DNA of 32,892 nt from contig VXLW01000053.1 in NCBI GenBank assembly GCA_009841435.1, positions 1-32,892 on the forward strand. Direction: 5' to 3'. The notes beneath the pieces are model-generated. The model saw only the letters and a program-made list of their open reading frames with translations. It made no database searches and was not told the DNA's origin. This stretch comes from Dehalococcoidia bacterium. GTDB lineage: Bacteria > Chloroflexota > Dehalococcoidia > Tepidiformales > Tepidiformaceae. Both the position numbers and the translations under genes were made by a program. Below are positions 1,212-21,532 of this stretch, in pieces (the stretch's first letter is position 1; every line of letters begins with the position of its first letter).

Positions 1212-2687
1212 CTAGATGCCCAGCTCGCCCCACAGCTCGTTCGCCTGCTTCTGCAGGTCGGCCCGGAAGTCGGGATGCGCCACGCTGATCAGCTCGGCGG
1301 CGCGCTGCCGGTGGTTCTTGTCGAGCAGCCTCGCCACCCCGTACTCGGTCACGATCGTGTCCGCCAGGTAGCGCGGGATCGTTACGAGCGTCCCCGCCTC
1401 GTGCTTCGCCACGATCTTCGAGAGCGAGCCCTCGATGGCCGTCGAACGCAGCACCGTGATGGCGCGTCCGTCCGGGCAGAGCGCCGCGCTGATATGCGTG
1501 TCCGGCTGCCCGCCCGTTCCGTTGATCATCTGGCCGCCGTAGCGGTCCTCGCTCGCAATCTGCCCCAGCAGGTCGACCGCCACGGCGCTGTTGATCGAGG
1601 TCATCTGGCTGTTCTGCGACATCAGCGCCGGGTTCAGCAGGTAGTTCGGGTCGTACACCTCGAACGCGGGGTTGTCGTTGATGATCCCGAGGTCCACGCC
1701 GTCGCAGCCCGTCCAGGCCACGGCCACGCAACGCTCCTTGTGGATCGTCTTCCGCGAGTTGTCGATGATGCCCCGCGCCCAGAGCTGCGCCAGCCCCGGC
1801 GACCCCAGCTCCGTGTGCACGCCCAGGTGCTTCGCGTGGTCGAACGCGCCCGCCTTGAACATCAGCGCGCTCGGCGTTCCCACCCCCACCTGGATCGTGT
1901 CGCCGTCCCGGATCAGCGGCGCGAGGTTGTCCGCGATCGCCTGCGCCTCGTCGTCGACCTCCGCCAGCCCGAACGCCTGCCGCACGATCTTCGGCGGGAG
2001 CATGTGGTACATGCTCTCCGCCAGCGCGATTTGGTCGGGACTGGCCATGTCGAGCAGTTCCAGCAACTCCGCGCGGTTCTCCTCGGGCGCCTGCGTGTGC
2101 ACTCGCTCCCGCACCGCCTCGGCGTTCACCGGCTGGATGACGCCCTCGATAAACGCCGCGAACTCGCTCACATGTACCCACACGTCGCCGTGCGCCGGTG
2201 TGATGTTCGGGTCGATCATGCCAATGGTCCTGGGGCAGCGCTTCGTGTACGACTTCCGCGTCCACATGTGCACACCGAACTGCACGTAACCGGCGTCGTT
2301 CGGCTCGCTGCAGGACGTGATCTGCACGTCCGGAAGGCGCGCCTCCTCGCGGCCCGCATCGAACGCCTTCATGCCCAGCATGAACGTGTTCGGCAGGTAG
2401 GTCCCAATCTTGGCGTCGTGCGCCGCCCGCAGCGGCTCGCCGATGAACAGCTCGAATTCGCGCTCGCCGTTCTGGCCGGGGCTGAAGAGCCGCGGCTCCG
2501 TGGGCGAGAGCGCGCGCACGTGCATGCTCCCGAGCTGGTCGGCGCGGTCGGCCAGGGCTGAGGCGAGCTGGGCGGGCGTCAGGACGCCCATCGTCACCAG
2601 GTCGCCGTCGCCGATGAGCGCCATCGCTTCCTCGACGCTGCAGAGGCGCTCCTTGTATGCCTCCCGCCAGTCTCCTGAGTGCGTCAT
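1212..2687 (-). CDS. Acetyl-CoA hydrolase / CoA-transferase family protein
   Basis: This 491-residue protein matches the length and layout of the acetyl-CoA hydrolase / 4-hydroxybutyrate (or propionate/succinate) CoA-transferase family. The GVGTP motif (residues 268-272) is the oxyanion-hole region. The HLGVHTELG segment places Glu293 where family members carry the glutamate that forms the glutamyl-CoA thioester. A GTGGQPD motif near 390-396 marks the C-terminal domain. The family exchanges or hydrolyses CoA on short acyl groups such as acetyl-CoA; the substrate cannot be read from sequence. The ATG at 2687 has an AGGAG 7-8 nt upstream. It lies 10 bp after the Rieske ferredoxin stop and is the last gene of the long minus-strand run. 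A role handling acetyl-CoA from the acetoin-type dehydrogenase upstream is plausible but inferred. Confidence 0.88.
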   Translation of the reverse strand: MTHSGDWREAYKERLCSVEEAMALIGDGDLVTMGVLTPAQLASALADRADQLGSMHVRALSPTEPRLFSPGQNGEREFELFIGEPLRAAHDAKIGTYLPNTFMLGMKAFDAGREEARLPDVQITSCSEPNDAGYVQFGVHMWTRKSYTKRCPRTIGMIDPNITPAHGDVWVHVSEFAAFIEGVIQPVNAEAVRERVHTQAPEENRAELLELLDMASPDQIALAESMYHMLPPKIVRQAFGLAEVDDEAQAIADNLAPLIRDGDTIQVGVGTPSALMFKAGAFDHAKHLGVHTELGSPGLAQLWARGIIDNSRKTIHKERCVAVAWTGCDGVDLGIINDNPAFEVYDPNYLLNPALMSQNSQMTSINSAVAVDLLGQIASEDRYGGQMINGTGGQPDTHISAALCPDGRAITVLRSTAIEGSLSKIVAKHEAGTLVTIPRYLADTIVTEYGVARLLDKNHRQRAAELISVAHPDFRADLQKQANELWGELGI

Positions 2688-3166: not shown

Positions 3167-4447
3167 CTAGCGGTCCGGCCCGTAGATGTAGTCGTCGATC
3201 GTCTTGTGCATGTGACGGATGCGCCGCTCGCGGTAGTTGATGAGCAGCCCCTTGTAGGCCCGCGAGTTCATCCCCTTCTGCACGCGCGGCAGATTGTAGG
3301 AATCCTGGTCGAGGACGAGTCCGATGGAGATCTCGCCGTGCTTGTACGTCGTGTGGGCCGGTCGCGGCGGCGGGTCCGCCCCATCCGGAATGCGCGTGTA
3401 GTTCTGCAGGTCGAAGTACATCTTGTTCGGGTCCGTCGCGTGCGGACGCTGCCGGAACACCATCACGCCTGTGTGGTGCGTGTTCAGCGTGATGCTCGGG
3501 AAGATGTAGTAGTGGTAGTCGTCCGTCATCTGGTCGTCGTTGAGCTCTGAGACGTCGATCCCGCGCGCTTCCGTGCTCTCGCGGGCCGCCGTCTGCATCA
3601 TCGTGCGGACTTCTTCCGGCGCCCCGTCGAACTCATCCGGGTCGATGCCGGCGCGCACCAGCATGCCTTGCAGTGCGTCCGTGATCTCGTCCTTGTTCGG
3701 GTAGCGCGGGCTCAGCAGCCCGAACGGCACCAGGTAGCGGTTGTGGCGGTCGTACAGGTCGATCTGCACATGGATGTCGTCCAGCGACTCGAGCAGCTGC
3801 GGGTGGATGCCCTGCACGTGGTAGACCTCGTTGAAGGCATCCACGGAGGCCTTCCAGTTTGTGTCCCACTCGATCGTCTTGTCCTGGACGATGTACATCT
3901 TCTCGAAGTGGTACGGGTCGATGTGCTCCGGCAGCACGCCCAGGAACTCTTCGAGGGGCTCCGCGTCCGGGTTCATGTTGAACCAGACCCAGCCGGCCCA
4001 GGTGTCGCACGGCACTTCGACGAGCGCCGTCTCCTGGGGAACGCCCTGGGTGAAGGTGTCCTCGTCCGGGACGAACTTCTTCGAGCCGTCGAGGTTGAAC
4101 TCGAAGAAGTGGTACGCGCACTGGAAGCTCTCCGCATGCCCCATGCCGGGGTTGCGGATCTGGTTCCCGCGGTGGGGGCAGACGTTGTAGAAGGCGCGGA
4201 CCTTGTCCTCCGCCTCGCGCACGATCAGGAACGACTCCGGCCCCAGCTCGGTGGTGAAGTAGTCACCTACGTTGGGGATGTCCTGCTCCCGCCCGGCGAC
4301 GTTCCACACCTTCGTCCACATGCGCTCCCACTCGAGCTCCATGAACTCCTTCGAGGTGTAGCGTTCCTTCGGGATCAGCTCCGTGCCCAGCAGGGGCTCC
4401 GGCGCCTTCTCCTGGGGGGTGCCCTTCACTCGTGCTTCAACAACCAC
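3167..4447 (-). CDS. Rieske non-haem iron oxygenase, alpha subunit
   Basis: This 426-residue protein has the two-domain layout of aromatic-ring-hydroxylating oxygenase alpha subunits. The N-terminal Rieske domain carries C90-x-H92 and C110-x2-H113. The catalytic domain has the ferrous-iron site in EVYHVQGIH: H210 and H215, with Glu207 at the position that usually bridges the Rieske and iron sites. Asp is usual there, but Glu occurs in CntA-like and choline-monooxygenase-like members. The likely third ligand is the Asp in LVLDQDSYN near the C-terminus. Such enzymes insert oxygen into aromatic or quaternary-ammonium substrates; the substrate is unknown. The start is GTG 4447 with AAGGAG seven nt upstream. 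It is followed by a Rieske ferredoxin, and no beta-subunit gene is visible. Confidence 0.9.
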   Translation of the reverse strand: MVVEARVKGTPQEKAPEPLLGTELIPKERYTSKEFMELEWERMWTKVWNVAGREQDIPNVGDYFTTELGPESFLIVREAEDKVRAFYNVCPHRGNQIRNPGMGHAESFQCAYHFFEFNLDGSKKFVPDEDTFTQGVPQETALVEVPCDTWAGWVWFNMNPDAEPLEEFLGVLPEHIDPYHFEKMYIVQDKTIEWDTNWKASVDAFNEVYHVQGIHPQLLESLDDIHVQIDLYDRHNRYLVPFGLLSPRYPNKDEITDALQGMLVRAGIDPDEFDGAPEEVRTMMQTAARESTEARGIDVSELNDDQMTDDYHYYIFPSITLNTHHTGVMVFRQRPHATDPNKMYFDLQNYTRIPDGADPPPRPAHTTYKHGEISIGLVLDQDSYNLPRVQKGMNSRAYKGLLINYRERRIRHMHKTIDDYIYGPDR

Positions 4448-4549: not shown

Positions 4550-5068
4550 CTAGTACGAACCCGGCGTGGGCACGATCTCCGTGCCCATTTCTTCCGGCTC
4601 CATCCCCAGCGTGATCAGCACCTTCGAGAGGCTCATGAAGAGCCCCACGCCCAGCGCCATCTCGACGATCTCGGGGTCGCTGAAGTGCTCCCGCAGCCGC
4701 TCCTGCACCTCGGGCGTTACCTGCCTCGGGTCCCCGATGATCGCATCCGTCAGGGCGATCGCCGCCTTGTCCCGCGAGGACAGGTCCGACTCTTCGTAGC
4801 CGTCCTCGATCTCCGTTACCTGGTCCTCGGTCAGTCCTTGCTCACGCGCCACGGCGAAGCGAACGTTCTTTCAGTAGCCGCAGTCCGTCACGCGGGCGTT
4901 TCGCATCCGCGTGACCTCCTTCGTGCGGTGGTCGAGCGCGCCCTTGCTCCAGAACGTCCCGTAGAGCATCCCGAAGGCGCCCGCCAGCCCCGGCTGGTGC
5001 GCCAGCGCCGTGCCGAAGCTGGCCTCCTCGCCCGGTATCGCCGAACTCACTCGTGGTTTGGTCGACAT
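4550..5068 (-). CDS. AhpD/carboxymuconolactone-decarboxylase-like protein with in-frame TGA: selenoprotein candidate
   Basis: Two open segments in the same frame are separated only by TGA at 4871-4873. Read through, they give a 172-residue AhpD-like protein. The ATG at 5068 has an AAGGAGG Shine-Dalgarno at ideal spacing. The active-site region reads E51-x11-C63-G-Y-[TGA66]-KNVR70, so the TGA replaces the second Cys of the C-x-x-C motif. In AhpD that cysteine is the nucleophile, activated by the conserved Glu. About 106 codons follow with good conservation (LSKVLITLGM) and a TAG stop. A small hairpin lies just after the TGA. AhpD-like selenoproteins with Sec at the redox motif are known, so selenocysteine is the best reading. 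A nonsense mutation or sequencing error (TGC to TGA) remains possible. It lies 19 bp behind a paralogue in the same operon. The role would be thiol/selenol peroxide or redox chemistry. Confidence 0.72.
4840..4873 (-). promoter_or_regulatory. Candidate bacterial SECIS hairpin after the in-frame TGA
   Basis: On the minus strand, 17 nt after the TGA, CGC pairs with GCG around a 4-nt loop, CGUG (4853-4850). An outer GCU/AGC pairing extends the stem with a bulge. Bacterial SECIS elements sit in the coding region directly after UGA, with a G in the first two apical loop positions; the loop here has G second. The stem is short and this is hand folding, so it is suggestive only. Confidence 0.4.
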
Positions 5069-5087: not shown

Positions 5088-5588
5088 TCAGTAGATCGGC
5101 CCCTCGCTCGAGGCCGGCATCGCCGCCTCGACCGGTGCGGGCTCGGTGCCCAGCGCCAGGCGCAGGCGGCAGTTCGCATCGAACAGCGCCACCCCGATCG
5201 TCAGCGCCACCACCCCCGACTCGCCGAAGTGTGCGTTCAGGTCCGCGTACTCCTCGTCGGTCAGGTCGTGGTGCTGCCAGGGCATCTTCTCGGCCAGCGT
5301 CAGCGCGGCCTGCTCCTGTTCGCTGAACAGGTCGCTGCCCGCCCAGTCCGCGAGCGCCGCGACCTGCGCGTCGCTCACGCCGGATTCGGCGTGGCGAACG
5401 GCCAGCTCGGCCTCGCAGTCGTGCAACTGCGCGACCCGCAACCGGCACAGTTCGAGCAGGCTCGCGGGCAGCAGCTCCTCATCCCAGAGCTTCCCGTAGA
5501 AGGCCGCGTACAGATCGCGCAACTCGGGCCGCAGGCCCAGCGCCGCATCGAACGGCGCGCTTCCTTCTGCTCCCTTGAGCCAGGTCAT
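5088..5588 (-). CDS. AhpD/carboxymuconolactone-decarboxylase-like protein, one active-site Cys missing
   Basis: This 166-residue protein has an AhpD-like helical core. The segment LELCRLRVAQLHDCEAELAVRH aligns with the usual E-x(n)-C-x-x-C-x3-H/R motif. The first cysteine (DC) is present, but the second position is Glu (C-E-A-E), so the redox C-x-x-C is broken. The gene lies directly upstream of the TGA-containing paralogue (19 bp gap), and the two may form a hetero-oligomer or act in sequence. Ordinary AhpD peroxidase chemistry is unlikely; decarboxylase-like or structural roles are possible. The start at ATG 5588 has only a weak ribosome-binding site. The family assignment is good and the function unknown. 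Confidence 0.8.
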   Translation of the reverse strand: MTWLKGAEGSAPFDAALGLRPELRDLYAAFYGKLWDEELLPASLLELCRLRVAQLHDCEAELAVRHAESGVSDAQVAALADWAGSDLFSEQEQAALTLAEKMPWQHHDLTDEEYADLNAHFGESGVVALTIGVALFDANCRLRLALGTEPAPVEAAMPASSEGPIY

Positions 5589-5635: not shown

Positions 5636-6154
5636 TCAGGTTGCCGCAGCCTGCGGGATTCGCACCCGTCCCAGCCGCTGCGCGACCTCCGTGATCCCCA
5701 CCGCAAAGGTCGCCGGGATCAGTTCACCCCGCTCGATCGCCGCGATGAACATCGGCAGGATCGTCATCAACACGCGGATGCGTACGGACTCGCGCGCGTG
5801 CCACTCTTCCGACACCCGCCCCTCCGCCACCATCTCCTCGAGGTCCTTCGGCAGGTAGACCCCGCCACGGCGCGCGTACGCCATCGTTGCGACAACCGCC
5901 ATCGCCCGTGGGTCGAGGTCGGTGCGGTGGAAGCCGGCGCTCTGGCTGGCCGGGAACCGCTGGATCGCCCCCTGGACGTTCTGGTGCAGGGCCTCTGCCT
6001 CTACGGCCGCCCCTGCGATGGCCCCTTCCGGGTCCTCTAGCTCCGACGTCAGCAGCGCGCCCCCCGCCAGCTCCGCCTCCGCCGCAGCCGTCACGTCCTC
6101 AATGCTGGCCCCCTCCGCGGAAAGGGACTTCAGGTGGTCGATCAGCGCGCCCAT
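5636..6154 (-). CDS. Unknown protein
   Basis: This 172-residue protein was not recognised. The first third is acidic and Ala/Glu-rich. The second half contains a conserved-looking segment, DLDPRAMAVVATMAYARRGGVYLP, then an amphipathic or hydrophobic helix (VLMTILPMFIAAIERG) and a basic end. It has no signal peptide and no clear metal or nucleotide motif. The ATG at 6154 has GGAGG about five nt upstream. It sits between E3 and the first AhpD-like gene on the same strand, 70 bp after the E3 stop and 47 bp before the next start, so it is probably co-transcribed with them. Confidence 0.7.
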   Translation of the reverse strand: MGALIDHLKSLSAEGASIEDVTAAAEAELAGGALLTSELEDPEGAIAGAAVEAEALHQNVQGAIQRFPASQSAGFHRTDLDPRAMAVVATMAYARRGGVYLPKDLEEMVAEGRVSEEWHARESVRIRVLMTILPMFIAAIERGELIPATFAVGITEVAQRLGRVRIPQAAAT

Positions 6155-6224: not shown

Positions 6225-7622
6225 CTAGACGTGCAGCACCCGGTCGTAGGCGTCGAGCACCGACTCGTGCATCGCCTCCGAGATCGTCGGATGCGGGAAC
6301 ACGGTCTCCATCAGCTCGGCCTCGGTCGTCTCCAGGCCCATCGCGACAACGAACCCCTGGATCATCTCCGTCACGTCCGGGCCCACCATGTGCGCCCCGA
6401 GCAGCTCGTCCGTATCGGCGTCGAAGACCGTCTTCACCATGCCGCCCGTGTCGCCCACGGCGATCGCCTTGCCGTTCCCGACCAGCGGGAAACGCCCAAC
6501 GCGCACGCTGAAGCCGGCCTCCTGCGCCGCCGCCTCGGTCAGGCCGACGCTCGCCACCTGCGGGTGGCAGTAGGTGCAGCCGGGGATGCGCCGCCGCTCC
6601 ATCGGCCGCGCCGAGGGCAGCCCTGCGATCCGCTCCACGCAGATCACGCCCTCGTGCATCGCCTTGTGCGCCAGCAGCGGCGGCCCGGCAACGTCGCCGA
6701 TGGCGTAGAGCCCCGGCTCGCCCGTCTCCAGCCACTCGTTCACGACGATCGCCCCGCGGTCGACCGTGGCCGCCGTCGCTTCGAGCCCGAGGCCCTCGAC
6801 GTTGCCGGTCACGCCCACCGCCAGGATGGCGCGGTCGAAGGTTGCCTCGACCGTGCCCTCCTCGGTTGCGATCGTGGCCGTCACGCTGTTGTCGCCCTTT
6901 TCGAGCGATTCCACCGTGGCGTTCGTGTGAATCGCGATGCCCTGCTTCTCGAACTCTTCACGTGCGAAGGCCGAGATCTCCTCGTCCTCCACGGGCAGGA
7001 TGCGGGGCAGCACCTCCACCACCGTCACCTCCGCCCCGAGCGAACGGTAGAAGCTCGCGAATTCGACGCCGATCGCGCCCGACCCGATGACCAGCAGCGA
7101 GTCGGGCATCATCGTTGGGACCATCGCTTCCTTGTACGTCCAGACCAGCTCGCCGTCGGGCTCCAGGCCCGGGAGCGAACGCGGCCGCGCGCCCGTTGCC
7201 ACGATGATGTTGTCCGCGCCCAGTTCGGCGACGGTCTCGCCGTCCTTCTCGACGACGATCCCGCCCCCGCCTGTGAGTCGCGCTGCCCCGTCGAACACCT
7301 GGATCTTGTTCTTCCGCATGAGGAACTTGACGCCGCTGTTGAGCTGGCGCGCCACCGATCGCGAGCGACTCACGACCTTGTCCAGGTCGAACGAGGCCTC
7401 GGCCGTCAGGCCGTAGCGCTCGGCGTCCTGCATCTCGCGGTAGAGGTCGGCCGTGTGCAGGAGGGTCTTGGTGGGAATGCAGCCCCAGTTCAGGCAGATG
7501 CCCCCGAGGTGCTCGCGCTCCACGAGGGCCGTCTCCAGTCCGAGCTGCGACGCCCGAATCGCGGCCACATAGCCGCCCGGGCCGCCGCCCACCACTACGA
7601 CATCGAACGTTGTTTCCGCCAT
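6225..7622 (-). CDS. lpdA: Dihydrolipoyl dehydrogenase (E3)
   Basis: This 465-residue flavoprotein has every hallmark of E3. An N-terminal FAD-binding GGGPGG motif is at 12-17. The redox disulfide is in GGICLNWGCIPTK (C43 and C48). A second dinucleotide motif, GSGAIGVEFA, lies mid-protein, and GDVAG is in the FAD domain. The C-terminal HPTISE (H444, E449) is the catalytic His-Glu pair supplied to the partner subunit. It reoxidises the dihydrolipoyl groups of the E2 subunit and reduces NAD. It follows the E2 gene by 12 bp in the order E1 alpha, E1 beta, AcoX, E2, E3. The start at ATG 7622 has GGGGAGGGG upstream. No lipoyl domain is fused to it. The identification is secure. Confidence 0.97.
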   Translation of the reverse strand: MAETTFDVVVVGGGPGGYVAAIRASQLGLETALVEREHLGGICLNWGCIPTKTLLHTADLYREMQDAERYGLTAEASFDLDKVVSRSRSVARQLNSGVKFLMRKNKIQVFDGAARLTGGGGIVVEKDGETVAELGADNIIVATGARPRSLPGLEPDGELVWTYKEAMVPTMMPDSLLVIGSGAIGVEFASFYRSLGAEVTVVEVLPRILPVEDEEISAFAREEFEKQGIAIHTNATVESLEKGDNSVTATIATEEGTVEATFDRAILAVGVTGNVEGLGLEATAATVDRGAIVVNEWLETGEPGLYAIGDVAGPPLLAHKAMHEGVICVERIAGLPSARPMERRRIPGCTYCHPQVASVGLTEAAAQEAGFSVRVGRFPLVGNGKAIAVGDTGGMVKTVFDADTDELLGAHMVGPDVTEMIQGFVVAMGLETTEAELMETVFPHPTISEAMHESVLDAYDRVLHV

Positions 7623-7634
7623 CGTGCCCCTCCC

Positions 7635-9020
7635 CTAGACCAGCAGCCGGAACGGCGCTTCGAGGTAGTCGCGCAGCGAGGCCAGGAACTGCGCTGCCGG
7701 CGCCCCGTCGAGCGCGCGGTGGTCCCAGGTCAGGCTCAGCGTCATCGCCTTCTGCCGGACGGGACGCTCCCCCTCCCAGCGCACGTCGTCGCGCAGCCGG
7801 TTCACCCCGAGGATGCCCACTTCGGGCGGGTTGAGGATGGGCGTGAACGAGTCGACCCCGAACATCCCCAGCGTCGACACCGTGAAGGTGCCGCCCGCCA
7901 TGTCGTCGAGCCCGAGCTTCCCTTCGCGCGCCAGCCCCGCCAGCCGCGAGGACTCCAGCGCGATCTCCTTCAGCCCGAGTTGGTCGACGTGCCGCACCAC
8001 CGGCACGACGAGCCCCTCATCGAGCGCGACGGCCATGCCCACGTGAACCTCGCCCCGCAGGTTCATCTCCGTTCCGAGGAACTGTGCGTTCATGCGTGGG
8101 TGGTCGAGCAGCGCTTTCGCCGCGGCCTTCATCACGATGTCGGTGTACGAGGGTCGCACGCTGTCGCCCGCCCACTCCTCGATCAGTTGGCTGCGCAGCT
8201 TCACGCAGTCGTCCATGGCCACGTCCATGTCCATGGTCAGCTGCGCCGTCTCCTGCAGGCTCGCGTACATGCGCTCGGCGATGACCTTGCGCATGCCCCG
8301 CACCGCCATCACCTCGTCCTCGCGCGCCGCCGCCGGAGCAGCCGCTGCTGCGGGGGCAGCCGCGGGCGCGCCGCTCGCTGCTGCCGCTTCGACGTCTTCC
8401 TTCGTGATGCGACCGCCGGGGCCCGTCCCTGTCACTGTCGACAGGTCGACGCCGAGCGCCTCCGCCCGCTTCCGCGCCAGCGGCGAGGCAGGCGCGGGGG
8501 CGCCCGCCGGAGCAGCCGCGGGTGCGGCTGCCGCCGCCTCGTGCGCGGTACGCACGTCGTCTTCGGTCACGCGCCCGCGCGGACCCGTCGCCGTAACCGT
8601 GGCGAGGTCCACGCCCAGCTCTTTCGCAAGCCGCCGCGCGGCCGGCGAGGCCGGCACACGCTCGCCCTCGGCTCGTGCCGGGGCTGCGGGAGCTTCGGTC
8701 GCTGCTGCCGCAGGCTCTGCCTCGGCAGGAGCGGCGTCCGCCGCTGGCGCGCCGCCTCCCGGCAACACATCCGGAATCTCTTCGTCGGCGGCGTAGATCC
8801 ACCCCACGACCGCGCCCGGGTCGACGGTGGCCTCGGCCGGCACCAGGTGCCGCACGATGCCCGCGGCTTCCGCCTCGACCTCCATCTCGACCTTCTCGGT
8901 CTCGAGCCGGTAGAGGTCCTCGCCGAGCTTCACCTCGCCGCCGTCGGGGATGTGCCACTCGGCTACGGTTCCCTCCGTCATCGTCATGCCGAGCTTCATC
9001 ATGTAAATCTCGGTTGGCAT
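7635..9020 (-). CDS. Dihydrolipoamide acyltransferase (E2) with two E3-binding domains
   Basis: This 461-residue protein uses the ATG at 9020, where the lipoyl domain begins (MPTEIYMMKLGMTMTEG); a longer in-frame extension looks non-coding. The domains in order are: a lipoyl domain (1-80) with Lys43 in ETEKVEM as the lipoylation site; an Ala/Pro linker; a first peripheral-subunit-binding domain (122-156); a second linker; a second binding domain (177-211); and a catalytic core (235-461) with H434-x3-D438-G. E2 transfers an acyl group, probably acetyl, from E1 to CoA. Two E3-binding domains are unusual for bacterial E2. Only one base separates the AcoX stop from this ATG (TGAgATG), so translation is probably coupled. 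The acetoin versus pyruvate preference is not decided by sequence. Confidence 0.94.
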   Translation of the reverse strand: MPTEIYMMKLGMTMTEGTVAEWHIPDGGEVKLGEDLYRLETEKVEMEVEAEAAGIVRHLVPAEATVDPGAVVGWIYAADEEIPDVLPGGGAPAADAAPAEAEPAAAATEAPAAPARAEGERVPASPAARRLAKELGVDLATVTATGPRGRVTEDDVRTAHEAAAAAPAAAPAGAPAPASPLARKRAEALGVDLSTVTGTGPGGRITKEDVEAAAASGAPAAAPAAAAAPAAAREDEVMAVRGMRKVIAERMYASLQETAQLTMDMDVAMDDCVKLRSQLIEEWAGDSVRPSYTDIVMKAAAKALLDHPRMNAQFLGTEMNLRGEVHVGMAVALDEGLVVPVVRHVDQLGLKEIALESSRLAGLAREGKLGLDDMAGGTFTVSTLGMFGVDSFTPILNPPEVGILGVNRLRDDVRWEGERPVRQKAMTLSLTWDHRALDGAPAAQFLASLRDYLEAPFRLLV

Positions 9021-9021
9021 C

Positions 9022-10068
9022 TCATCCCCCGTCCTGTTGGAGTTGCTGTTCCTCTGGCGAGCCGCCGGCCGCCTCGTCGTTGCGATACAAACCCACGCAC
9101 GCTGCGTACTCCAGCGTCGCGTGGACATCGATGACCCAGGGACCATCCCGGGCTACTCGGAGTGTAGCCGCTTGCCCCGGTTTCAACACACGCTCACGTT
9201 CGCCGTCGAACGCGAGCACGCCCGGTCCCGTCACCGTCACCGACTCCCCGAGCGCGAGTCGCGTGTGCGAACGCACGGCGATCGGCTCGTACAGCCCCGG
9301 CGCGATCGGCGCCAGCAGGGAGACGCCCCCCTCGCCCGGCCCCAGGCGCATGTGCAGTGCCTCGTCCTCGTTCGGCGTCAGCGGGGCCAGCAACCCCCCG
9401 ATGGAGGTGATTCCCACGGCCGACGGCTCCGCCCGCGTGACGACCGCCTCGCGCAGGCGCTCCCCGCCCCAGATCGCACGCGAACCCACAAAGCGGTCGG
9501 CAGCGAGCACGGCGTCGACGAGGGCGATGTCGTCGCGCTCGCCTTCGATCTCGACGTGTACCGCCTTCACCTGCCTCGCGACCCGGTCCAGCGGAACCTG
9601 GCCACTGGCCACGAGCCCCGCCGCCGAGCCCGCTACCGTTGCCTCCACCATCGTCGGGAAGACGTTGTTCGTGCCCGTTGAGACGGGAACGATGGGCGCC
9701 TCTCGCCAGCCAAGCGCGAAGGCCCGGTTCGTGCCGTCTCCCCCGAGCGTGATGACAGCCCCGCAGCCCTCCGCCCGCAACGACTCCGCCGCGCGGATGG
9801 TGTCGAGCGTGCTCGCCGTGTGCGTCGCCTCAACGGCGACGAACGTAGCCTCGTCGCCGAATTCCTCGGCTGCGGCTGCCGTGATCCCGTGCGTGTCGGG
9901 CATGTAGCGGAAGTCGCGCACGCCGCTCGCGAGTGCGCCAACGATCGCGCGCCGCACGATCGCGCGCTTCTCCTGGTTGTCGAAGACCGACGCGCGCGCA
10001 ACGAGGCGGCGGATGTCCTTCCCCGAAGCGGGGTTGGCGGCGATCCCGAGTGGGCGCGAGGCGGTCAG
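9022..10068 (-). CDS. acoX: AcoX-like ATP-NAD kinase family protein, apparent CTG start
   Basis: This 348-residue protein carries the GGDGT motif of NAD/diacylglycerol kinase folds (109-113) and STGTNNVFP downstream. The N-terminus, GIAANPASGKDIRRL then ASVFDNQEK, is typical of AcoX from acetoin-catabolism operons. That conserved part lies upstream of the first ATG-like codon (9957). The only suitable start before it is CTG at 10068, four bases after the E1 beta stop, which would give MTASRPLGIAANP. An in-frame TAG at 10072-10074 blocks any longer frame. AcoX is not needed for the known dehydrogenase reaction and its role is unclear, but its place between E1 beta and E2 is the classic acoABXC arrangement. 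The family is secure; the start codon is inferred from conservation. Confidence 0.88.
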   Translation of the reverse strand: MTASRPLGIAANPASGKDIRRLVARASVFDNQEKRAIVRRAIVGALASGVRDFRYMPDTHGITAAAAEEFGDEATFVAVEATHTASTLDTIRAAESLRAEGCGAVITLGGDGTNRAFALGWREAPIVPVSTGTNNVFPTMVEATVAGSAAGLVASGQVPLDRVARQVKAVHVEIEGERDDIALVDAVLAADRFVGSRAIWGGERLREAVVTRAEPSAVGITSIGGLLAPLTPNEDEALHMRLGPGEGGVSLLAPIAPGLYEPIAVRSHTRLALGESVTVTGPGVLAFDGERERVLKPGQAATLRVARDGPWVIDVHATLEYAACVGLYRNDEAAGGSPEEQQLQQDGG

Positions 10069-10071
10069 GGC

Positions 10072-11076
10072 CTATCCCGTCCCGAGGATGCGACGCGCCT
10101 CGGCCGCGATGCGCTCGGCGTTCGGCACGTACGTCTGCTCCAGCACCGGGCTGAACGGCACGGGCGAGAACGGCGCCGCCACGCGGCCGACCGGCGCATC
10201 GAGGTAGTCGAACGCCAGCTCCGCGATCTGCGCCGCAATCTCCGCGCCGACGCCGCCGAAGCGGACCGCCTCGTGCACGACGAGCGCGTTATGCGTCTTC
10301 GACACCGAGTTGATGATCGTGTCGGTGTCGAGCGGCTGCAGCCACAGCGGGTCGATGACCTCGACGCTGATGCCTTCGCCCTCGAGGATATCCGCGGCCT
10401 TCGTGGCCTCGTGGATCATCCGCCCGTGCGCTACGACGGTGAGGTTGTCGCCCTCGCGCAGCACGTTCGCCTTCCCGATGGGAAGCGTGTACGGCTCCTC
10501 CGGTACCTCGCCCGGCAGCGCCATCAGGCCCTTGCACATCACGACGAACACCGGGTTCGGCTCGCGCGCGGCGGTGATGATCGCGCCCTTCACGTCGTAG
10601 GCCGTCGCCGGCATCACCACCTTCAGGCCCGGCGTGTGGCAAAGCCACGCCTCCAGGCTCTGGGAGTGCTGCGCCGCCAGGTTCATGCCCGCGCCCGACA
10701 TCGTCAGAACGGTCACCGGCAGCGTCGCCTTGCCGCCGAACATGTACCGCATCTTCGCGAGCTGGTTGACGATCTCGTCCATGCACTCGCCGATGAAGTC
10801 CATGAACATAATGTCCACGATCGGCTTGAGGCCCGTGGCCCCCGCCCCCACCGCCAGCCCGATGATGCCGGACTCGCTGATGGGCGTGTCGATCACGCGG
10901 TCCGGCCCGAACTCGTCGAGCAGGCCGCGGTAGATGCCGAACACGCTGCCCGCGCCGGCGACGTCCTCGCCGGCCATGAACGCCAGCGGTTCCTCCTGGA
11001 GCGCCTGGCGGACGCCCTCCGTTATCGCGAGGGTGTAAACGAGTTGCCGCCCGGCGGGCGCTTCTGCTGCGGTCAT
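10072..11076 (-). CDS. acoB: Thiamine-dependent dehydrogenase E1 beta subunit (acetoin/pyruvate type)
   Basis: This 334-residue protein matches E1 beta subunits in length and motifs: GEDVAGAGSVFG near the N-terminus, DTPISESGIIGLAVGAG, and VTVLTMSGAGMNLAAQHSQSLEAW, which contains the conserved QHSQ. The C-terminal transketolase domain (VLREGDNLTVVAHGRM, WLQPLDTDTI) completes it. With E1 alpha it forms the heterotetramer that binds thiamine diphosphate and decarboxylates pyruvate or cleaves acetoin. AcoX next door favours the acetoin system. The ATG at 11076 has AGGAG eight nt upstream, and the E1 alpha stop is 10 bp before it. It ends in TAG in the same frame as AcoX. Confidence 0.92.
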   Translation of the reverse strand: MTAAEAPAGRQLVYTLAITEGVRQALQEEPLAFMAGEDVAGAGSVFGIYRGLLDEFGPDRVIDTPISESGIIGLAVGAGATGLKPIVDIMFMDFIGECMDEIVNQLAKMRYMFGGKATLPVTVLTMSGAGMNLAAQHSQSLEAWLCHTPGLKVVMPATAYDVKGAIITAAREPNPVFVVMCKGLMALPGEVPEEPYTLPIGKANVLREGDNLTVVAHGRMIHEATKAADILEGEGISVEVIDPLWLQPLDTDTIINSVSKTHNALVVHEAVRFGGVGAEIAAQIAELAFDYLDAPVGRVAAPFSPVPFSPVLEQTYVPNAERIAAEARRILGTG

Positions 11077-11086
11077 TGGTTCGCTC

Positions 11087-12106
11087 CTAACTCGCCGCCG
11101 TGGGCGTGTAGACGTCGTTGAGCAGGTTCGCCGGGTCCGGCAGGGGGCTGTTCTCGGCGAATTCGATCGACTCGGTGATGTCGGCCATGACTGCGTCGTG
11201 CACGGCTTGGATCTCCTCCGCGGTCATCACGCCCATCTCGACCATGCGCTGCTCGTGCTGCGGGATCGGGTCACGGGCTCGCCACTCTTCGAGCTCCTCG
11301 TCGGTGCGGTAGTGCAGACCGATGCCGCGCAGGCCCACGTGGTCGACGAAGCGGTAGGTCTTGCACTCCACCAGCGTGGGGCCGCCACCTGAGCGGGCGC
11401 GTTCGATCGCCTCGCCGGCGGCTTCCCAGACTGCAATCGCGTCCATGCCGTCGCAGATGACGCCCGGCATGCCGTACCCGGCGGCGCGGTCGGCGACGTC
11501 ACTGATCGCTTGGTGCTCCGCCTGTGGCGTGAACTCGCCGTAACCGTTGTTCTCGCAGACGAACACCACCGGCAGCTTCCAGATGGCCGCCATGTTCGCC
11601 GCCTCGTGGAAGGCGCCCTCGTTCGTCGCGCCGTCGCCGAAGAAGGGGACGGCCACGTTCATGGAGTCGCGACCTTCCATCCGGGCGAGGTACTTGTTCG
11701 AGAAGGCCGCGCCCACGGCGATGGGCGGCCCCGCCGCCACGATGCCGTTCGCGCCGAGCATGCCCGCATCCACGTTCGAGATGTGCATGCTGCCGCCGCG
11801 GCCCTTGTTGTAGCCGGTCTCCCGGCCGTACAGCTCCGCGTACATCTTCTTGAACTCGCCGCCCTTGGCCACCAGGTGCCCGTGGCCGCGATGCGTGCTC
11901 GTAATCTGGTCCTGGTCGCTGAGGTGCACCATCACACCCGATGCGACGGCTTCCTCGCCGATGTACAGGTGCAGCGCCCCCGGCGACTTGCCCTGTTCCA
12001 TCAGCTTGCCCGCCTCTTCCTCGAAGTGGCGAATTCGCACCATCCGGAGATGCAGGTCCTTCAGGACCTCTTCGCTTGGTTCCATTGCCTGGCTGCTGTT
12101 GGCCAC
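11087..12106 (-). CDS. acoA: Thiamine-dependent dehydrogenase E1 alpha subunit (acetoin/pyruvate type)
   Basis: This 339-residue protein starts at GTG 12106, chosen because GGAGG lies six nt upstream; the frame extends further but without a ribosome-binding site. The thiamine-diphosphate motif runs from GDG (157-159) to NN (186-187). STHRGHGH and KGRGGSMHIS are the expected E1 alpha phosphorylation-loop region. SMHISNVDAGMLGANGIVAAG resembles acetoin dehydrogenase alpha subunits as well as pyruvate dehydrogenase. With E1 beta it carries out the first step: thiamine-dependent cleavage and transfer of the acyl group to E2 lipoate. It is the first gene of the minus-strand cluster, divergent from the SDR gene, with an inverted repeat in the shared control region. 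Confidence 0.92.
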   Translation of the reverse strand: MANSSQAMEPSEEVLKDLHLRMVRIRHFEEEAGKLMEQGKSPGALHLYIGEEAVASGVMVHLSDQDQITSTHRGHGHLVAKGGEFKKMYAELYGRETGYNKGRGGSMHISNVDAGMLGANGIVAAGPPIAVGAAFSNKYLARMEGRDSMNVAVPFFGDGATNEGAFHEAANMAAIWKLPVVFVCENNGYGEFTPQAEHQAISDVADRAAGYGMPGVICDGMDAIAVWEAAGEAIERARSGGGPTLVECKTYRFVDHVGLRGIGLHYRTDEELEEWRARDPIPQHEQRMVEMGVMTAEEIQAVHDAVMADITESIEFAENSPLPDPANLLNDVYTPTAAS

Positions 12107-12226
12107 GGCATCCTCCGCGCACAGTGGGATAGGGACGCCGTCGCGGGCGTCCGAGCGCCCGCGCATCGTACAGGACCACTCCGACTCGACAAAGGCGCGG
12201 CGCCCCTTCCCGCCTGCACTTTCGTA

Positions 12227-16524: not shown

Positions 16525-16581
16525 GACGCAAATGAGCGAGTGGCCGGGATGACGGCCAGCTATAGAAAGAAGGGGTACGAA

Positions 16582-18480
16582 ATGGCTGAAGGGTATTGGG
16601 GTAAGTACTGGCGAAGGCGCGTCTCGCGCCGCCGGATCCTCGCCGGAAGCGCTGCCGCTGCCGCGGGCGCCGCCGGCCTTGTGGCTGTTGGCTGCGGCGA
16701 TGACGACGACGATGAAGAGCCGGAGCCGGCCGCTACCGCCGCACCGACCGAGGCTGCAGCGGCAACTGAAGCCGCCCCTGACGAGGCGGCGACCGAAGCT
16801 GCAACTGAAGCTGCGGCCACAGAGGCTGCGACCGAGGCCGCGACCCAGGCCGCCGCCACCGGCCCCAGGTCGGGCGGCACCTTCAAGGCGCAGCGCGCCT
16901 TCGCCGAAACGGGCTACGACCCTGCCATCACCATCACGGGCTACCAGTGGGCGGCCGTCACTTACAACCACCTCCTCGGCTACTCCCTCATTGAGGACGA
17001 GGCCTGGGGAGATGCGGCCCAGAGCTGGGAGCAGCCCGACCCCTTCACGATCGTCTTCAACCTCGAGCCCAACCTGCGCTTCAACCCCGAGGCCGCGGGC
17101 GGACGCCCGATCACGTCACAGGACATCGCCTACAGCTACGCGCGCCTCCCTGCCGCCTTCACCAACCTCGCCTCCGAGGTCAACCCGATGCAGTTCTCCT
17201 TCATGGCCGGGTTCGACACGCCCGACGAATCGACCTTCGCCCTGAATATGGCCTACCCGTGGGTCTCCGCCATCCCCACGCTCGCCTCCACCTCCCTCGC
17301 CATCGTCGCTCCCGAGGTCGTCGAGGCGAACGGCGGCAACCTCACCGATACCGTCAATGCCGGCGGCGGCGCCTACATGTTCGAGTCCCGCGGGCTCGAC
17401 GGGTTCAACTCCTACGTGCGCAACCCCAACTACGCCGGCCATACCACCGCCCGCGGGCGCTTCACCAAGGACCCGCCCTACATCGACGGCTGGGAGGACG
17501 CTCTCATCACCGATTCCGCCACCGCCGAGGCCCGCTTCCTCGCCGGCGACTCGGACATCCTCACCGGCGTCGTCGGCGGCATCGACGCCATCAAGGCCGA
17601 AGAGCTCCGCGGCCAGGACGGCGTCAACATCATCACCGGCCCCACCAACACCCACCTTGTCATGGCCCTCGACGCGCTCAAGTGGGCGCGCTTCCCGCAA
17701 CTGCGCGAAGCCCTCTCGCACTCCATCGACTGGGATGGCTACATCGACATCGTCCACGACGGCGACGGCATCCGCGGGGCGCCCGTCGGCCCCCGCTTCC
17801 CCCAGGTCCTCTCCCAGGACGAGATCCGACAGCTCCAGCAGTTCGATCCCGAGCGCGCCCGCCAGCTGTGGGAGCAGGGCGGCGGCGATCAGGTCTTCCC
17901 CGATGGCCTCACCACCCTCCTCGCCACCTTCGCGAACACGCGCGGCACCGAGTTCATCTCCCAGAGCATCGAGGAGAACCTCGGTGTCGAGGTGACGATG
18001 ATGCCGGTGGATCTTGCCACCTACGTCTCCAGCCTCACGGCCCCGCCGGGCTCGAAGATCTGGCACTTCGCCCTCGTCACCGAGAACACCCTCTCGACCA
18101 TCCCCGACTACAACGCCCTCACCCACTACGTGCCCTTGGGCTACGGCGGGGCCTTCGGCCTCTTCATCCACGAGCACCCGCAGGCGCCGCTCATCCCGCC
18201 CGAGGTCATCGACATCACGCACGACATCGGCAAGCCCATCCAGGACCTCTACAACGCTCAGTCCGTGACCCACGACCCCGAGCAGCGCACCGCCCTGCTG
18301 CACCAGCTGCAGCGCCTCCTCTTCACGCAGTTCTGCTGCACCTTCCCTGTCCCCGTGGAGGCCACGGAGCAGCACGCCCTCCGCACCCGCGTCCAGAACG
18401 CGCCGTTGCCCCCGGACTTCCGCGATAACGGCTCCATGGGTTACCGGCGGGCCCAGAACATGTGGCTCTCCGACGCCTGA
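16582..18480 (+). CDS. ABC transporter substrate-binding lipoprotein, oligopeptide type (Tat-exported), copy 1
   Basis: This 632-residue protein starts at ATG 16582 (MAEGYWGKYW), where homology with the second copy begins and an AGAAGGGG site precedes. The N-terminus carries a twin-arginine signal (SRRRILAGS) and ends in a lipobox, VAVGC (Cys38), so it is probably a Tat-exported lipoprotein. A low-complexity Ala/Thr/Glu linker (about 40-95) tethers the solute-binding domain. That domain shows SBP family 5 features: YNHLLGYSLIEDEAWGDAAQSWE, a LRFNPEAAGGRPITSQDIAYSY region, LREALSHSIDWDGYI and a conserved Cys-Cys pair near the end (FCCTFP). It captures a peptide-like or other solute for the permeases downstream; the ligand is unknown. 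It is a duplicate of the next gene. Confidence 0.92.
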   Translation: MAEGYWGKYWRRRVSRRRILAGSAAAAAGAAGLVAVGCGDDDDDEEPEPAATAAPTEAAAATEAAPDEAATEAATEAAATEAATEAATQAAATGPRSGGTFKAQRAFAETGYDPAITITGYQWAAVTYNHLLGYSLIEDEAWGDAAQSWEQPDPFTIVFNLEPNLRFNPEAAGGRPITSQDIAYSYARLPAAFTNLASEVNPMQFSFMAGFDTPDESTFALNMAYPWVSAIPTLASTSLAIVAPEVVEANGGNLTDTVNAGGGAYMFESRGLDGFNSYVRNPNYAGHTTARGRFTKDPPYIDGWEDALITDSATAEARFLAGDSDILTGVVGGIDAIKAEELRGQDGVNIITGPTNTHLVMALDALKWARFPQLREALSHSIDWDGYIDIVHDGDGIRGAPVGPRFPQVLSQDEIRQLQQFDPERARQLWEQGGGDQVFPDGLTTLLATFANTRGTEFISQSIEENLGVEVTMMPVDLATYVSSLTAPPGSKIWHFALVTENTLSTIPDYNALTHYVPLGYGGAFGLFIHEHPQAPLIPPEVIDITHDIGKPIQDLYNAQSVTHDPEQRTALLHQLQRLLFTQFCCTFPVPVEATEQHALRTRVQNAPLPPDFRDNGSMGYRRAQNMWLSDA

Positions 18481-18499
18481 CGGCGGAGGGGCCTGAATC

Positions 18500-18551
18500 C
18501 GGCTCATTGCGCCTATTGAAAGGCGTATGGGCTTCCGTTATGAATGAGCCG
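18500..18551 (+). repeat. Nested inverted repeat between the two binding-protein genes
   Basis: In the 105-bp gap, CGGCTCATT (18500-18508) pairs with AATGAGCCG (18543-18551). An inner CGCC/GGCG hairpin (18510-18525) sits inside it. There is no T-run. It may modulate mRNA processing or partial termination between the duplicated genes, or be an operator. The AGGAGGG ribosome-binding site of the second gene follows. Confidence 0.45.
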
Positions 18552-18585
18552 ATCGGCCCGAAATACAAGGGCCAGGAGGGATGAT

Positions 18586-20493
18586 ATGGCTGAAGGGTAT
18601 TGGGGGAAGTATTGGCGTCGGCGGGTTTCACGCCGGCGAGTCCTTGCGGGAGGTGCGGCCGTTGGCGCTGGCGCCGCCGCCCTCGTAGCCGTTGGCTGCG
18701 GAGACGATGACGACGACGATGCCGCCGCTCCTGCGGCGACGCAGGCGGCCCGTGCGACTGAGGCGGCTGAGCAGGCCGCCGAGGAAGCGACCGAGGCCGC
18801 CCAGGCCGCCGAGGCTGAGGCCACCGAAGCCGCCCAGGCCGCCGAGGCTGAGGCGACCGAGGCCGCCGATCCGGTCCAGCGGGGCGGAACGTTCCAGCAC
18901 CAGAAGTCGGCCCAGAACACGACGCTCGACCCCTCGGTTACCGTCACCGACCCCACGTGGACGGCGCTCACCTACAACCACCTGCTCGGCTACTCCCTTG
19001 TCGAGGAAGAGGCCTGGGGCGATGCGGCTAACGGCTGGGAGCAACCCGACGCCACCACGCTCGTCTTCAACCTCGAGGATGGGCTGAAGTTCAACCCCAA
19101 CGCCGCCGGCGGGCGCGACCTGACCTCCGAGGACGTGGCCTTCAGCTACAGCCGGTTCCCGTCCAGCCTCTCCGACTTCGGTTCCGAGGTGAACCAGCTG
19201 CAGTGGGGCTGGATGGGCGTCGACCGTGGCGCATCATTCGATACGCCGGATTCCCAGACTTTGACCATCAACCTCGCGTTCCCATGGGCTTCCGCAATCC
19301 CCTCGCTCGGATCGAGCGCCATGGCGATCGTCAACCGCGAGGCGGTCGAGGCCGCCGGCGGTGGTCTCCACGATGTCCCGAACGCCGGCGCCGGCGCCTA
19401 CATGTTCGAGAACATCGACGAAACCGGAAACACGTACGTACGCAACCCCAACTACCGGGGCCATTCGACCGCCCGCGGTCGCTTCACCGATGAGGTGCCC
19501 TACATCGATCGCTGGGAGGACGCCATCATCGTCGACCAGGCCTCGCGCGAGGCGCGCCTCCTGGCCGGTGACTCTGACGTCCTCGGTAGCATTGACAAGA
19601 TCCAGGCTGAGCTGTTCGAAGGCGAGCAGAACGTTCAGGTCATCTCCGGCCCCGCCAACGACCACGCCATCATGGAGCTCGACGCCTACAAGTGGGCCGA
19701 GCACCCGCTGCTGCGCGAGGCGCTGTCGCTCTCGATCGACTGGGAGGGCTACATCGAGGTCGTCCTCGACGGTGAGGGCATCCGCGGCGCTCCCGTCGGC
19801 CCGGCGTTCTCGCAGGTGCTTCCACAGGACGAGATTCGCCAGCTCCAGCAGTTCGACCCCGAGCGCGCTCGCCAGCTCTGGGCGCAGGGTGGCGGCGACG
19901 ACGTGTTCCCCGATGGGTTCGTGACCGTCATCGCGACATTTGGCACGAGCACCCGCCACATCGAGTTCATCGCCCAGAGCATCGAGGAGAACCTCGGTGT
20001 TCCCACCCTGCTTGAACCCGCCGACCTCGCCACCTACGTGGCGATCGCGACGGCGCCGCCGAGCGAGAAGATCTGGCACTACTTCATTGCGGGCGAGAAC
20101 TCGCTCTCAACCATTCCCGACTACAACGCCCTCACCCACTACGTGCCAAACGGGTACGGCGCCATCTTCGGCGGTCTCTACACCTTCGATCACGTGCTTT
20201 CGGCGTTCTATGACGACGAGATCATCGCGGTCACGGACGAGATCGGGAGCGAGCTCCAGGGCCGCTACGACCTCCAGGGCGCAACCGTCGACCCGGAGGA
20301 GCGCAAGGAGATCCTCCAGGATATGCAGCGGTATATCTTCACGAACTTCTGCTGCGTCCTACCGCTGCCCGTGGCCTCCGTCCAGTACTACGCCATGGGC
20401 GCGCGCCTGCGGAACGTTCCGCCCGTGCCCGACATCGCCAACAACGCGTCGATGGGCTACCGGCGCGCCCAGAACATGTGGCTCGACGGCTAG
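18586..20493 (+). CDS. ABC transporter substrate-binding lipoprotein, oligopeptide type (Tat-exported), copy 2
   Basis: This 635-residue paralogue follows the first copy by 105 bp. The first 18 residues (MAEGYWGKYWRRRVSRRR) are identical in both. The Tat motif, lipobox LVAVGC and poly-Asp stretch recur, as do YNHLLGYSLVEEEAWGDAA, SQVLPQDEIRQLQQFDPERARQLW, SIEENLGV, the FCC pair and the terminal MGYRRAQNMWL. The Ala/Glu/Thr linker contains an exact 11-residue repeat. The ligand-pocket regions differ more than the ends, suggesting a related but different substrate. AGGAGG lies seven nt before ATG 18586. It is followed by a hairpin and then the permease genes, so both binding proteins probably feed one transporter. 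Confidence 0.92.
   Translation: MAEGYWGKYWRRRVSRRRVLAGGAAVGAGAAALVAVGCGDDDDDDAAAPAATQAARATEAAEQAAEEATEAAQAAEAEATEAAQAAEAEATEAADPVQRGGTFQHQKSAQNTTLDPSVTVTDPTWTALTYNHLLGYSLVEEEAWGDAANGWEQPDATTLVFNLEDGLKFNPNAAGGRDLTSEDVAFSYSRFPSSLSDFGSEVNQLQWGWMGVDRGASFDTPDSQTLTINLAFPWASAIPSLGSSAMAIVNREAVEAAGGGLHDVPNAGAGAYMFENIDETGNTYVRNPNYRGHSTARGRFTDEVPYIDRWEDAIIVDQASREARLLAGDSDVLGSIDKIQAELFEGEQNVQVISGPANDHAIMELDAYKWAEHPLLREALSLSIDWEGYIEVVLDGEGIRGAPVGPAFSQVLPQDEIRQLQQFDPERARQLWAQGGGDDVFPDGFVTVIATFGTSTRHIEFIAQSIEENLGVPTLLEPADLATYVAIATAPPSEKIWHYFIAGENSLSTIPDYNALTHYVPNGYGAIFGGLYTFDHVLSAFYDDEIIAVTDEIGSELQGRYDLQGATVDPEERKEILQDMQRYIFTNFCCVLPLPVASVQYYAMGARLRNVPPVPDIANNASMGYRRAQNMWLDG
18790..18855 (+). repeat. Two 33-bp tandem repeats in the binding-protein linker
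   Basis: Two consecutive 33-bp units each encode TEAAQAAEAEA and differ at only two bases. They lie in the linker between the lipidated cysteine and the folded domain. Such in-frame repeats are prone to slippage and would change tether length without breaking the frame. Confidence 0.8.
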
Positions 20494-20509
20494 CTGGTTG
20501 AGAGAGTTG

Positions 20510-20540
20510 CCGGTCCCCGGCCCGCGTGGTCGGGGACCGG
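20510..20540 (+). terminator. Hairpin between binding protein and permease genes
   Basis: A perfect 10-bp stem (CCGGTCCCCG and its complement, 11-nt loop) followed by AATTTCT lies in the 77-bp gap after the second binding-protein gene. It fits a partial terminator or 3'-stabilising hairpin that keeps permease expression below that of the binding proteins, as is common in ABC importer operons. Confidence 0.6.
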
Positions 20541-20570
20541 AATTTCTGGGAACGGAGGAGAGGAGGAGTC

Positions 20571-21518: not shown

Positions 21519-21532
21519 TCGGAGCCGCCACC

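What the first reader, a model, noticed from the sequence alone, without database searches (positions are those of the whole stretch)
4550..5068. Probable selenocysteine at the catalytic position of an AhpD-like protein
The TGA at 4871-4873 replaces exactly the second Cys of C-x-x-C, the nucleophile in AhpD. The AhpD-type Glu sits 12 residues before the first Cys. Reading is open and conserved on both sides of the TGA, and the start and ribosome-binding site are ideal. A random nonsense mutation would be unlikely to hit this codon. AhpD-like selenoproteins are known in bacteria (established). A selenoprotein here, in an operon with an acetoin-type dehydrogenase and a Rieske oxygenase, would be a notable context.
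Basis: partly seen in the sequence, partly recalled or inferred. Interest (0 to 1): 0.85.

Follow-up and report, generated by a model that had tools for sequence, protein, structure and literature searches.

The report
AhpD-like selenoprotein with inactive partner gene
A small redox protein of an uncultured Chloroflexota bacterium almost certainly carries selenium at its active site, because its in-frame stop codon is conserved in relatives and the genome has the machinery to read it; the kind of protein is known, but its conserved pairing with a degenerate sister gene is a less familiar detail.

Summary
TGA codon 66 (4871-4873) is the only internal stop and takes the second place of C-x-x-C (CGYU). 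Selenocysteine is strongly supported. The genome has tRNA-Sec, selA, selB and a Sec-containing selD. Five of its eight CMD matches have an in-frame TGA, each at C-x-x-U. Of 27 named-genome orthologues from three phyla, 20 have TGA and 7 Cys at this codon, with no other stop. All six genomes of sister group g3 (Tepidiforma) lack SelA, and the five in which the gene was found read Cys. Selection is purifying on both sides of the TGA. CxxU proteins of this Pfam family have been in print since 2005, so this is a new member of a known kind. In part of the family the pair lies in an E1-E2-E3 cluster, which suggests electrons from lipoyl-E2 and E3, as for Mycobacterium AhpD. That route, the heteromer and the substrate are inferred. 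The SECIS hairpin is not significant by energy; the best RNA-level sign is codon conservation in an AT-rich relative.

The parts
4550..5068 (-). CMDsec: AhpD-like/CMD-family selenoprotein gene, 172 aa with Sec66 (C-G-Y-U), stop TAG
   Evidence: orthologues
4871..4873 (-). TGA codon 66 read as selenocysteine; second position of CxxC
4828..4873 (-). TGA and candidate bacterial SECIS: the window's own lowest-energy fold is a hairpin 7-31 nt after the TGA with loop CGUG; L073-L076 fold nearly the same letters with loop CGUGGC
   Evidence: energy not significant; codon identity with L074 9 of 9 against 12 of 52 elsewhere, p=1.7e-5
5088..5588 (-). CMDdeg: degenerate CMD paralogue, C-E-A-E in place of CxxU, 19 nt upstream of CMDsec; ends in an ordinary TGA stop
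5636..6154 (-). orphan 172-aa protein between E3 and CMDdeg, no Pfam or NCBIfam match at the thresholds used
6225..7622 (-). E3, dihydrolipoyl dehydrogenase
   Evidence: TIGR01350 555 bits, over its cut-off
7635..9020 (-). E2, lipoyl acyltransferase (ORF opens at 9146; likely Met start at 9020)
9022..9957 (-). ATP-NAD-kinase-like protein in the place of AcoX (the name AcoX is recalled)
10072..11076 (-). E1 beta
11087..12166 (-). E1 alpha
3167..4447 (-). Rieske ring-hydroxylating-type oxygenase alpha subunit, 102 nt downstream of CMDsec
1212..2687 (-). acetyl-CoA hydrolase/CoA-transferase family protein

Best explanation
Codon 66 (UGA) is translated as selenocysteine by the genome's own SelA/SelB/SelC/SelD system, giving a CMD-family, AhpD-like thiol-selenol oxidoreductase with a C-G-Y-U redox pair (probability about 0.97). 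The protein most likely cycles between a selenol-thiol and a selenenylsulfide (inferred from CxxU and the family). It probably works together with the CMDdeg subunit encoded just upstream, which has lost the second redox residue (heteromer inferred from conserved tandem order, about 0.6). Where it lies in the E1-E2-E3 cluster it may take electrons from NADH through E3 and the lipoyl arm of E2 and pass them to a peroxide or an oxidised partner, for example to limit damage from the neighbouring oxygenase (inferred by analogy with Mycobacterium Lpd-DlaT-AhpD-AhpC, about 0.3; lowered from 0.35 on re-check, because two family members, L075 and L076, have the pair without that cluster).
For: Sec decoding: tRNA-Sec, SelA (8), SelB (11), SelD with its own TGA (12, 17). 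5 of 8 CMD matches in the genome have one in-frame TGA, each at C-x-x-TGA. 20 of 27 orthologues have TGA and 7 of 27 Cys. 7 of 7 same-genus genomes of the sample have TGA; 5 of 5 g3 genomes in which the gene was found have Cys; SelA is in 9 of 9 genomes of the genus and 0 of 6 of g3. SelA is in 18 of 20 Sec-type and 3 of 7 Cys-type orthologue genomes (p=0.024). dN/dS is 0.079 before and 0.119 after the TGA over 10 sequences, against pN/pS 1.9 and 3.1 in the shifted frames. RNA level: in L074 (GC3 0.32) 9 of 9 codons at +4 to +12 are identical to the window's, against 12 of 52 elsewhere. Partner: a CMDdeg relative directly upstream in 25 of 27 loci. Cluster with short gaps. Electron route in Mycobacterium: PMC12028322, passages.
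Against: The window's candidate SECIS hairpin is not more stable than synonymous recodings (p=0.75; stem score p=0.66); of 25 Sec sequences only L003, L006 and L092 fall below 0.05 in either test. SelA was not found in 3 of 27 genomes with a TGA-type CMD match (G002, G133, G212: 54, 69 and 90% complete) nor in 2 of the 20 Sec-type orthologue genomes (those of L090 and L092); all of these are draft assemblies. The E1-E2-E3 cluster was seen only in the window's family and not in all of it: L075 and L076 lack it within 10 kb upstream. Elsewhere I saw SDR, P450, zinc-dehydrogenase or Rieske neighbours, so lipoyl-E2 cannot be the general donor. Arg70 stands where AhpD has His. None of the twelve listed parts is a peroxiredoxin by the family scans made. 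L081 has no partner gene.
Confidence: 0.85

Rival explanations
1. The protein is a selenoprotein, but it does not take electrons from the E2/E3 of the cluster: it is a stand-alone thiol oxidoreductase or peroxidase fed by another reductant, or a CMD-type enzyme acting on a product of the neighbouring oxygenase or dehydrogenase.
For: The pair occurs without E1-E2-E3 genes in the flanks held of L075 and L076 (same family) and of the Pseudomonadota loci, next to SDR, P450 or Rieske genes. The His of AhpD is Arg here.
Against: In the window's genus, in g3 (Tepidiforma) and in L074 the pair stays in the E1-E2-E3 cluster, although in g3 the E3-like gene at that place is only 28-33% identical to the window's.
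Confidence: 0.55
2. The TGA is a true stop, or a fresh nonsense mutation, and the gene is a pseudogene or two pieces.
For: TGA is an ordinary stop elsewhere in the same cluster (CMDdeg ends in TGA).
Against: Same codon TGA or Cys in 27 of 27 loci with no other stop, purifying selection after the TGA, Sec machinery present.
Confidence: 0.01
3. Sequencing or assembly error at one codon.
For: Raw reads were not available.
Against: TGA in the same place in separately deposited records (20 of 27) and in four paralogues of the same genome.
Confidence: 0.005
4. TGA is read as Trp or another standard residue throughout the genome.
For: None found.
Against: TGA ends CMDdeg; in the five CMD genes read, the in-frame TGA inside the match falls only at C-x-x-U; orthologues replace it only by Cys.
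Confidence: 0.01

Closest known systems
CMD domain-containing / AhpD-like 2 selenoproteins (PF02627, CxxU) of the Sargasso Sea and GOS surveys
   Same: Same Pfam family, same C-x-x-U motif, Cys homologues known (PMC1088965 and PMC2398784, passages)
   Different: No tandem degenerate partner or E1-E2-E3 cluster is mentioned in the passages seen; orthology with this subfamily was not tested
NCBIfam NF053654 'YciW-related (seleno)protein'
   Same: Best NCBIfam match by E-value of CMDsec (45.6 bits), of CMDdeg (47.6) and of the four Sec paralogues of the genome (33 to 55 bits)
   Different: All far below its cut-off of 310 bits; not members by that rule
AhpD of Mycobacterium tuberculosis (Lpd-DlaT-AhpD-AhpC chain)
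   Same: Same Pfam family (recalled), Glu 12 residues before the first Cys, redox pair two residues apart; lipoyl-E2 and E3 genes in the same cluster
   Different: Sec instead of the second Cys, Arg instead of His at +4, AhpD-core NCBIfam model 22.5 bits against a cut-off of 27.8, no AhpC among the listed parts
PA0269 (2o4d, with 2ijc and 7xw1) and Atu0492 (2gmy), solved CMD proteins
   Same: Best solved relatives by sequence profile, E about 1e-14 to 1e-15; the Sec codon aligns with their second Cys
   Different: CxxC followed by His at +4 in the printed alignments, no Sec; their function was not looked up

Membership tests
Bacterial selenoprotein | in-frame TGA at a redox position with Cys homologues | tested here: met
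   20 TGA and 7 Cys of 27 loci
Bacterial selenoprotein | selA, selB, selC, selD in the genome | tested here: met
Bacterial selenoprotein | SECIS hairpin just after the TGA | tested here: inconclusive
   a hairpin folds at the right distance but is not significant against synonymous recoding; codon identity in L074 supports an RNA constraint
Bacterial selenoprotein | Sec shown in the protein | not testable with these tools
   needs mass spectrometry or selenium labelling
CMD family PF02627 | Pfam gathering score | tested here: met
   37.7 bits against 23
AhpD (Mycobacterium type) | Glu-x11-Cys-x2-Cys-x3-His (motif recalled) | tested here: not met
   Glu51 and Cys63 invariant, second site Sec or Cys, but Arg70 in place of His in 25 of 25 aligned rows
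AhpD (Mycobacterium type) | AhpD core domain model TIGR00778 over its cut-off | tested here: not met
   22.5 bits against 27.8
AhpD (Mycobacterium type) | reduction by lipoyl-E2 and E3 | not testable with these tools
   only gene neighbourhood seen
NF053654 YciW-related (seleno)protein | score over 310 bits | tested here: not met
   45.6 bits

The most novel reading that the evidence does not exclude
A two-gene module in which a Sec (or Cys) CMD subunit works only as a heteromer with a redox-dead sister subunit that supplies conserved His/Asp/Arg residues, coupled in part of the Tepidiformaceae to the lipoyl arm of an acetoin-type dehydrogenase complex: a selenium-dependent branch that draws electrons from such a complex to protect or serve an oxygenase.
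Probability: 0.22. Interest if true: 0.65.

Novelty: new member of a known kind. Interest (0 to 1): 0.42.

Why it matters
An uncultured genus of the Tepidiformaceae keeps five AhpD/CMD-like selenoproteins in a genome of about 2.7 Mb, and its cultivable aerobic sister genus Tepidiforma has the same gene in a matching cluster with Cys and no SelA: a natural Sec/Cys pair for asking what selenium adds. Annotation that takes TGA as a stop would split the gene. The conserved degenerate partner gives a handle on what these little-studied CMD selenoproteins do.

Tried and rejected
Pseudogene, read error and genome-wide reassignment of TGA were considered and rejected. Double-TGA matches in two relatives (G216, G242) suggested a UxxU motif, but reading them showed one Sec codon, at CDFU, in each. 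Hairpin energy as proof of a SECIS failed: window p=0.75 and, by stem length, p=0.66; dinucleotide shuffles gave z=0.96 for the window; RNAalifold over 16 sequences gave only 3 pairs, the clades having their hairpins at different places. The codon range +4 to +12 was chosen after seeing the alignment; of 13 comparisons L074, L075 and L072 were below 0.05. In one search I gave L007 and L008 in a wrong frame, so their empty results there mean nothing; one search repeated them in the right frame. The predicted structure had not returned after 17 collecting calls, so no fold evidence is used and no fold search was made. The tRNA-Sec model also scores other tRNAs at 40-50 bits; the six g3 genomes have nothing better than 47-50 bits, against about 70 for the genus, so SelA was used to call them Sec-negative. 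The gene caller is crude and served only to pick neighbours for Pfam.

Full report
OBSERVATION. The gene lies on the minus strand, 5068 to 4550. It starts with ATG after CCGAAGGAGGATGCG, has a single internal stop at codon 66 (TGA, + coordinates 4871-4873) and ends in TAG. Read through, it is a 172-residue protein with one PF02627 (CMD) domain, residues 33-107, 37.7 bits, spanning the TGA. The motif is D-C63-G-Y-U66-K-N-V-R70-F, with Glu51 twelve residues before Cys63. In profile alignments to solved relatives (PA0269, Atu0492; E about 1e-14 to 1e-15) codon 66 falls on the second Cys of CxxC.

SEC MACHINERY. The window is contig C13 of a genome of 2.71 Mb in 127 contigs, 89.78% complete. It holds tRNA-Sec (71.1 bits, gathering score 47; ARAGORN calls it SeC with anticodon tca), SelA (3.5e-120, cut by a contig end), SelB (296.9 bits over a cut-off of 242) and SelD (6.5e-103), whose own gene has a TGA at CGG-U.

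PARALOGUES. PF02627 gives 8 matches at E <= 0.001 in the genome. Five have one TGA inside the match, and all five have it as C-x-x-TGA: CGYU (window), CRYU, CFTU, and CDFU in two different genes. The other three are the degenerate partner next door and two proteins without CxxC in the matched region. By the listing, six of seven same-genus genomes have five TGA-type matches and the seventh has four; I read the codon position in all seven orthologues of the window gene and in the seven copies of one paralogue, not in the rest.

ORTHOLOGUES. In a class sample 65 of 245 genomes match at E <= 1e-8. The orthologue has TGA in 7 of 7 genomes of the genus; in five of the sister genus g3 it has Cys, C-G-F-C. 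A scan of named genomes gave 27 loci: Chloroflexota, Pseudomonadota (Gammaproteobacteria/Pseudomonadales) and Actinomycetota, one record naming only 'bacterium'. Identical coordinates show that g3 holds Tepidiforma flava (L084 = G173) and that the window's genus holds a record titled Tepidiformaceae (L073 = G092). The first Cys is kept in 27 of 27; the second site is TGA in 20 and Cys in 7; no other stop occurs in these frames. On a tree with the site masked, the Sec/Cys label needs four changes (bootstrap 3-4); many deep branches are weak and the root is unknown, so I claim no direction.

SEC STATE AND SELA. In the family sample SelA is in 9 of 9 genomes of the genus and 0 of 6 of g3, one of which is 72% complete. 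In the genomes of the 27 loci SelA is in 18 of 20 Sec-type (missing for L090 and L092) and 3 of 7 Cys-type (one-sided Fisher p=0.024; many loci are close relatives and not independent). Among the 65 class genomes SelA is in 24 of 27 with a TGA-type match and 20 of 38 without (p=0.0018; without the window's genus 17 of 20, p=0.014). The TGA-type genomes without SelA are G002, G133 and G212 (54, 69 and 90% complete). One SelA-positive genome among those without TGA, G158, rests on a short fragment. I checked the place of the TGA in 16 of these loci, all at C-x-x-TGA; L045 was not printed there.

SELECTION AND RNA. Over 10 sequences (window and 9 loci) dN/dS is 0.079 before and 0.119 after the TGA; the shifted frames give pN/pS 1.9 and 3.1. 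Hairpins with a G in the first two loop letters can be drawn at SECIS distance in all 25 Sec sequences: 7 bp with loop CGUGA or CGUGC in Pseudomonadota, 7-8 bp with triloops GGC, GUC or GUU in the four paralogues, and a bulged stem with loop CGUGGC, or by the window's own lowest-energy fold CGUG, in the window and its near relatives. Against synonymous recoding the window's hairpin is not special (p=0.75 and 0.66); only L003, L006 and L092 of 25 Sec sequences fall below 0.05 in either test, and Cys forms also give stems. The better sign is codon conservation: in L074, a marine relative whose GC3 is 0.32, codons +4 to +12 match the window's in 9 of 9 shared residues, against 12 of 52 elsewhere (p=1.7e-5). 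L075 gives p=0.01 and L072 p=0.049; the other ten of 13 comparisons, including the three Cys forms compared, are not significant. I chose that range after seeing the alignment.

PARTNER GENE. A second CMD gene, CMDdeg (5588-5088, minus strand), ends 19 nt before CMDsec and lacks the second redox residue (C-E-A-E). A relative lies directly upstream in 25 of 27 loci at E <= 1e-5. L083 has a diverged candidate seen only by eye, and L081 has none. In an alignment of the window's copy and 16 of those 25 (eight close relatives and L093 left out) eight columns are invariant: P21, L23, F30, H56, H107, D111, D137 and R141, while the Cys pair is not kept. In CMDsec, Arg70 is invariant in 25 of 25 rows (window plus 24 of 27 loci; L067, L069 and L088 left out) at the place of the AhpD His (AhpD motif recalled). 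This suggests a heteromer of a redox-active and a redox-dead subunit; nothing here shows it.

CLUSTER AND MECHANISM. Upstream on the same strand come E1 alpha, E1 beta, an ATP-NAD-kinase-like protein (the place of AcoX in acetoin operons, recalled), E2, E3 and an orphan 172-aa protein; downstream a Rieske oxygenase and a CoA-transferase-family protein. NCBIfam models score the E1 and E2 highest as pyruvate-dehydrogenase-type but below cut-off, so 'acetoin-type' rests on gene order alone. The cluster is seen in the genus (as far as the contigs reach; L072 lacks the Rieske gene), in L074, and in Tepidiforma with an E3-like and a Rieske gene only 28-33% identical. L075 and L076, whose SelA coordinates show them to be two more genera of the same family (G250, G249), have the pair without the cluster within 10 kb upstream. 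In M. tuberculosis electrons run NADH to Lpd to DlaT to AhpD to AhpC (PMC12028322, passages read). By analogy I propose that CMDsec can be reduced by the cluster's E3 and lipoyl-E2 where that cluster is present. Elsewhere the neighbours I looked at are SDR (L075, L085), P450 (L079), Rieske (L077) and zinc-dehydrogenase (L081) genes; in L091 an E2 relative and a Rieske gene lie further off on the other strand. So the donor must differ there, and a role in other oxygenase-linked chemistry is as likely. On re-check I lowered the electron-route odds from 0.35 to 0.3, and the novel case from 0.25 to 0.22, for the L075/L076 result.

KNOWN OR NEW. CMD-domain CxxU selenoproteins were reported from the Sargasso Sea (4 sequences) and the GOS data (AhpD-like 2, pfam02627, CxxU, 70 sequences), and are in a 2026 review table (PMC1088965, PMC2398784, PMC13188914; passages only). 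PMC1794560 lists other AhpD-like families (passages). The best NCBIfam match is the YciW-related (seleno)protein model, far below its cut-off. A search for Tepidiforma with selenocysteine found 0 papers. Searches for CMD with heterodimer (5 papers) and CMD with acetoin dehydrogenase (3 papers) show nothing on such a pair in titles and abstract beginnings; the papers were not read. The 2026 review does not hold the words Chloroflexota, Chloroflexi, acetoin or Rieske. Tepidiforma isolates are described as strictly aerobic, and genus UBA2991 is named there for cooler environments (PMC10284905, passages). I file this as a new member of a known kind, with an uncurated subfamily and a conserved partner as the part worth following.

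Noticed in passing
window 5088-5588 (-): Degenerate CMD paralogue directly upstream, conserved as a tandem pair in 25 of 27 loci; conserved His/Asp/Arg instead of the Cys pair.
   Followed up: partly
own genome: L003, L006, L007, L008: Four further CMD proteins with C-x-x-U, each followed by a 7-8 bp hairpin with a G-first triloop.
   Followed up: partly
own genome L026: SelD itself has an in-frame TGA (CGG-U).
   Followed up: no
window 5636-6154 (-): Orphan 172-aa protein without family match, kept between E3 and CMDdeg in the genus and in L074.
   Followed up: no
L082, L084, L087 (Tepidiforma group): Matching cluster with Cys, but the E3-like and Rieske genes there are only 28-33% identical to the window's, as if replaced.
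   Followed up: no
window 16540-22450 (+): Two family-5 solute-binding proteins in tandem followed by two permease genes: a peptide-type ABC transporter with two binding proteins.
   Followed up: no
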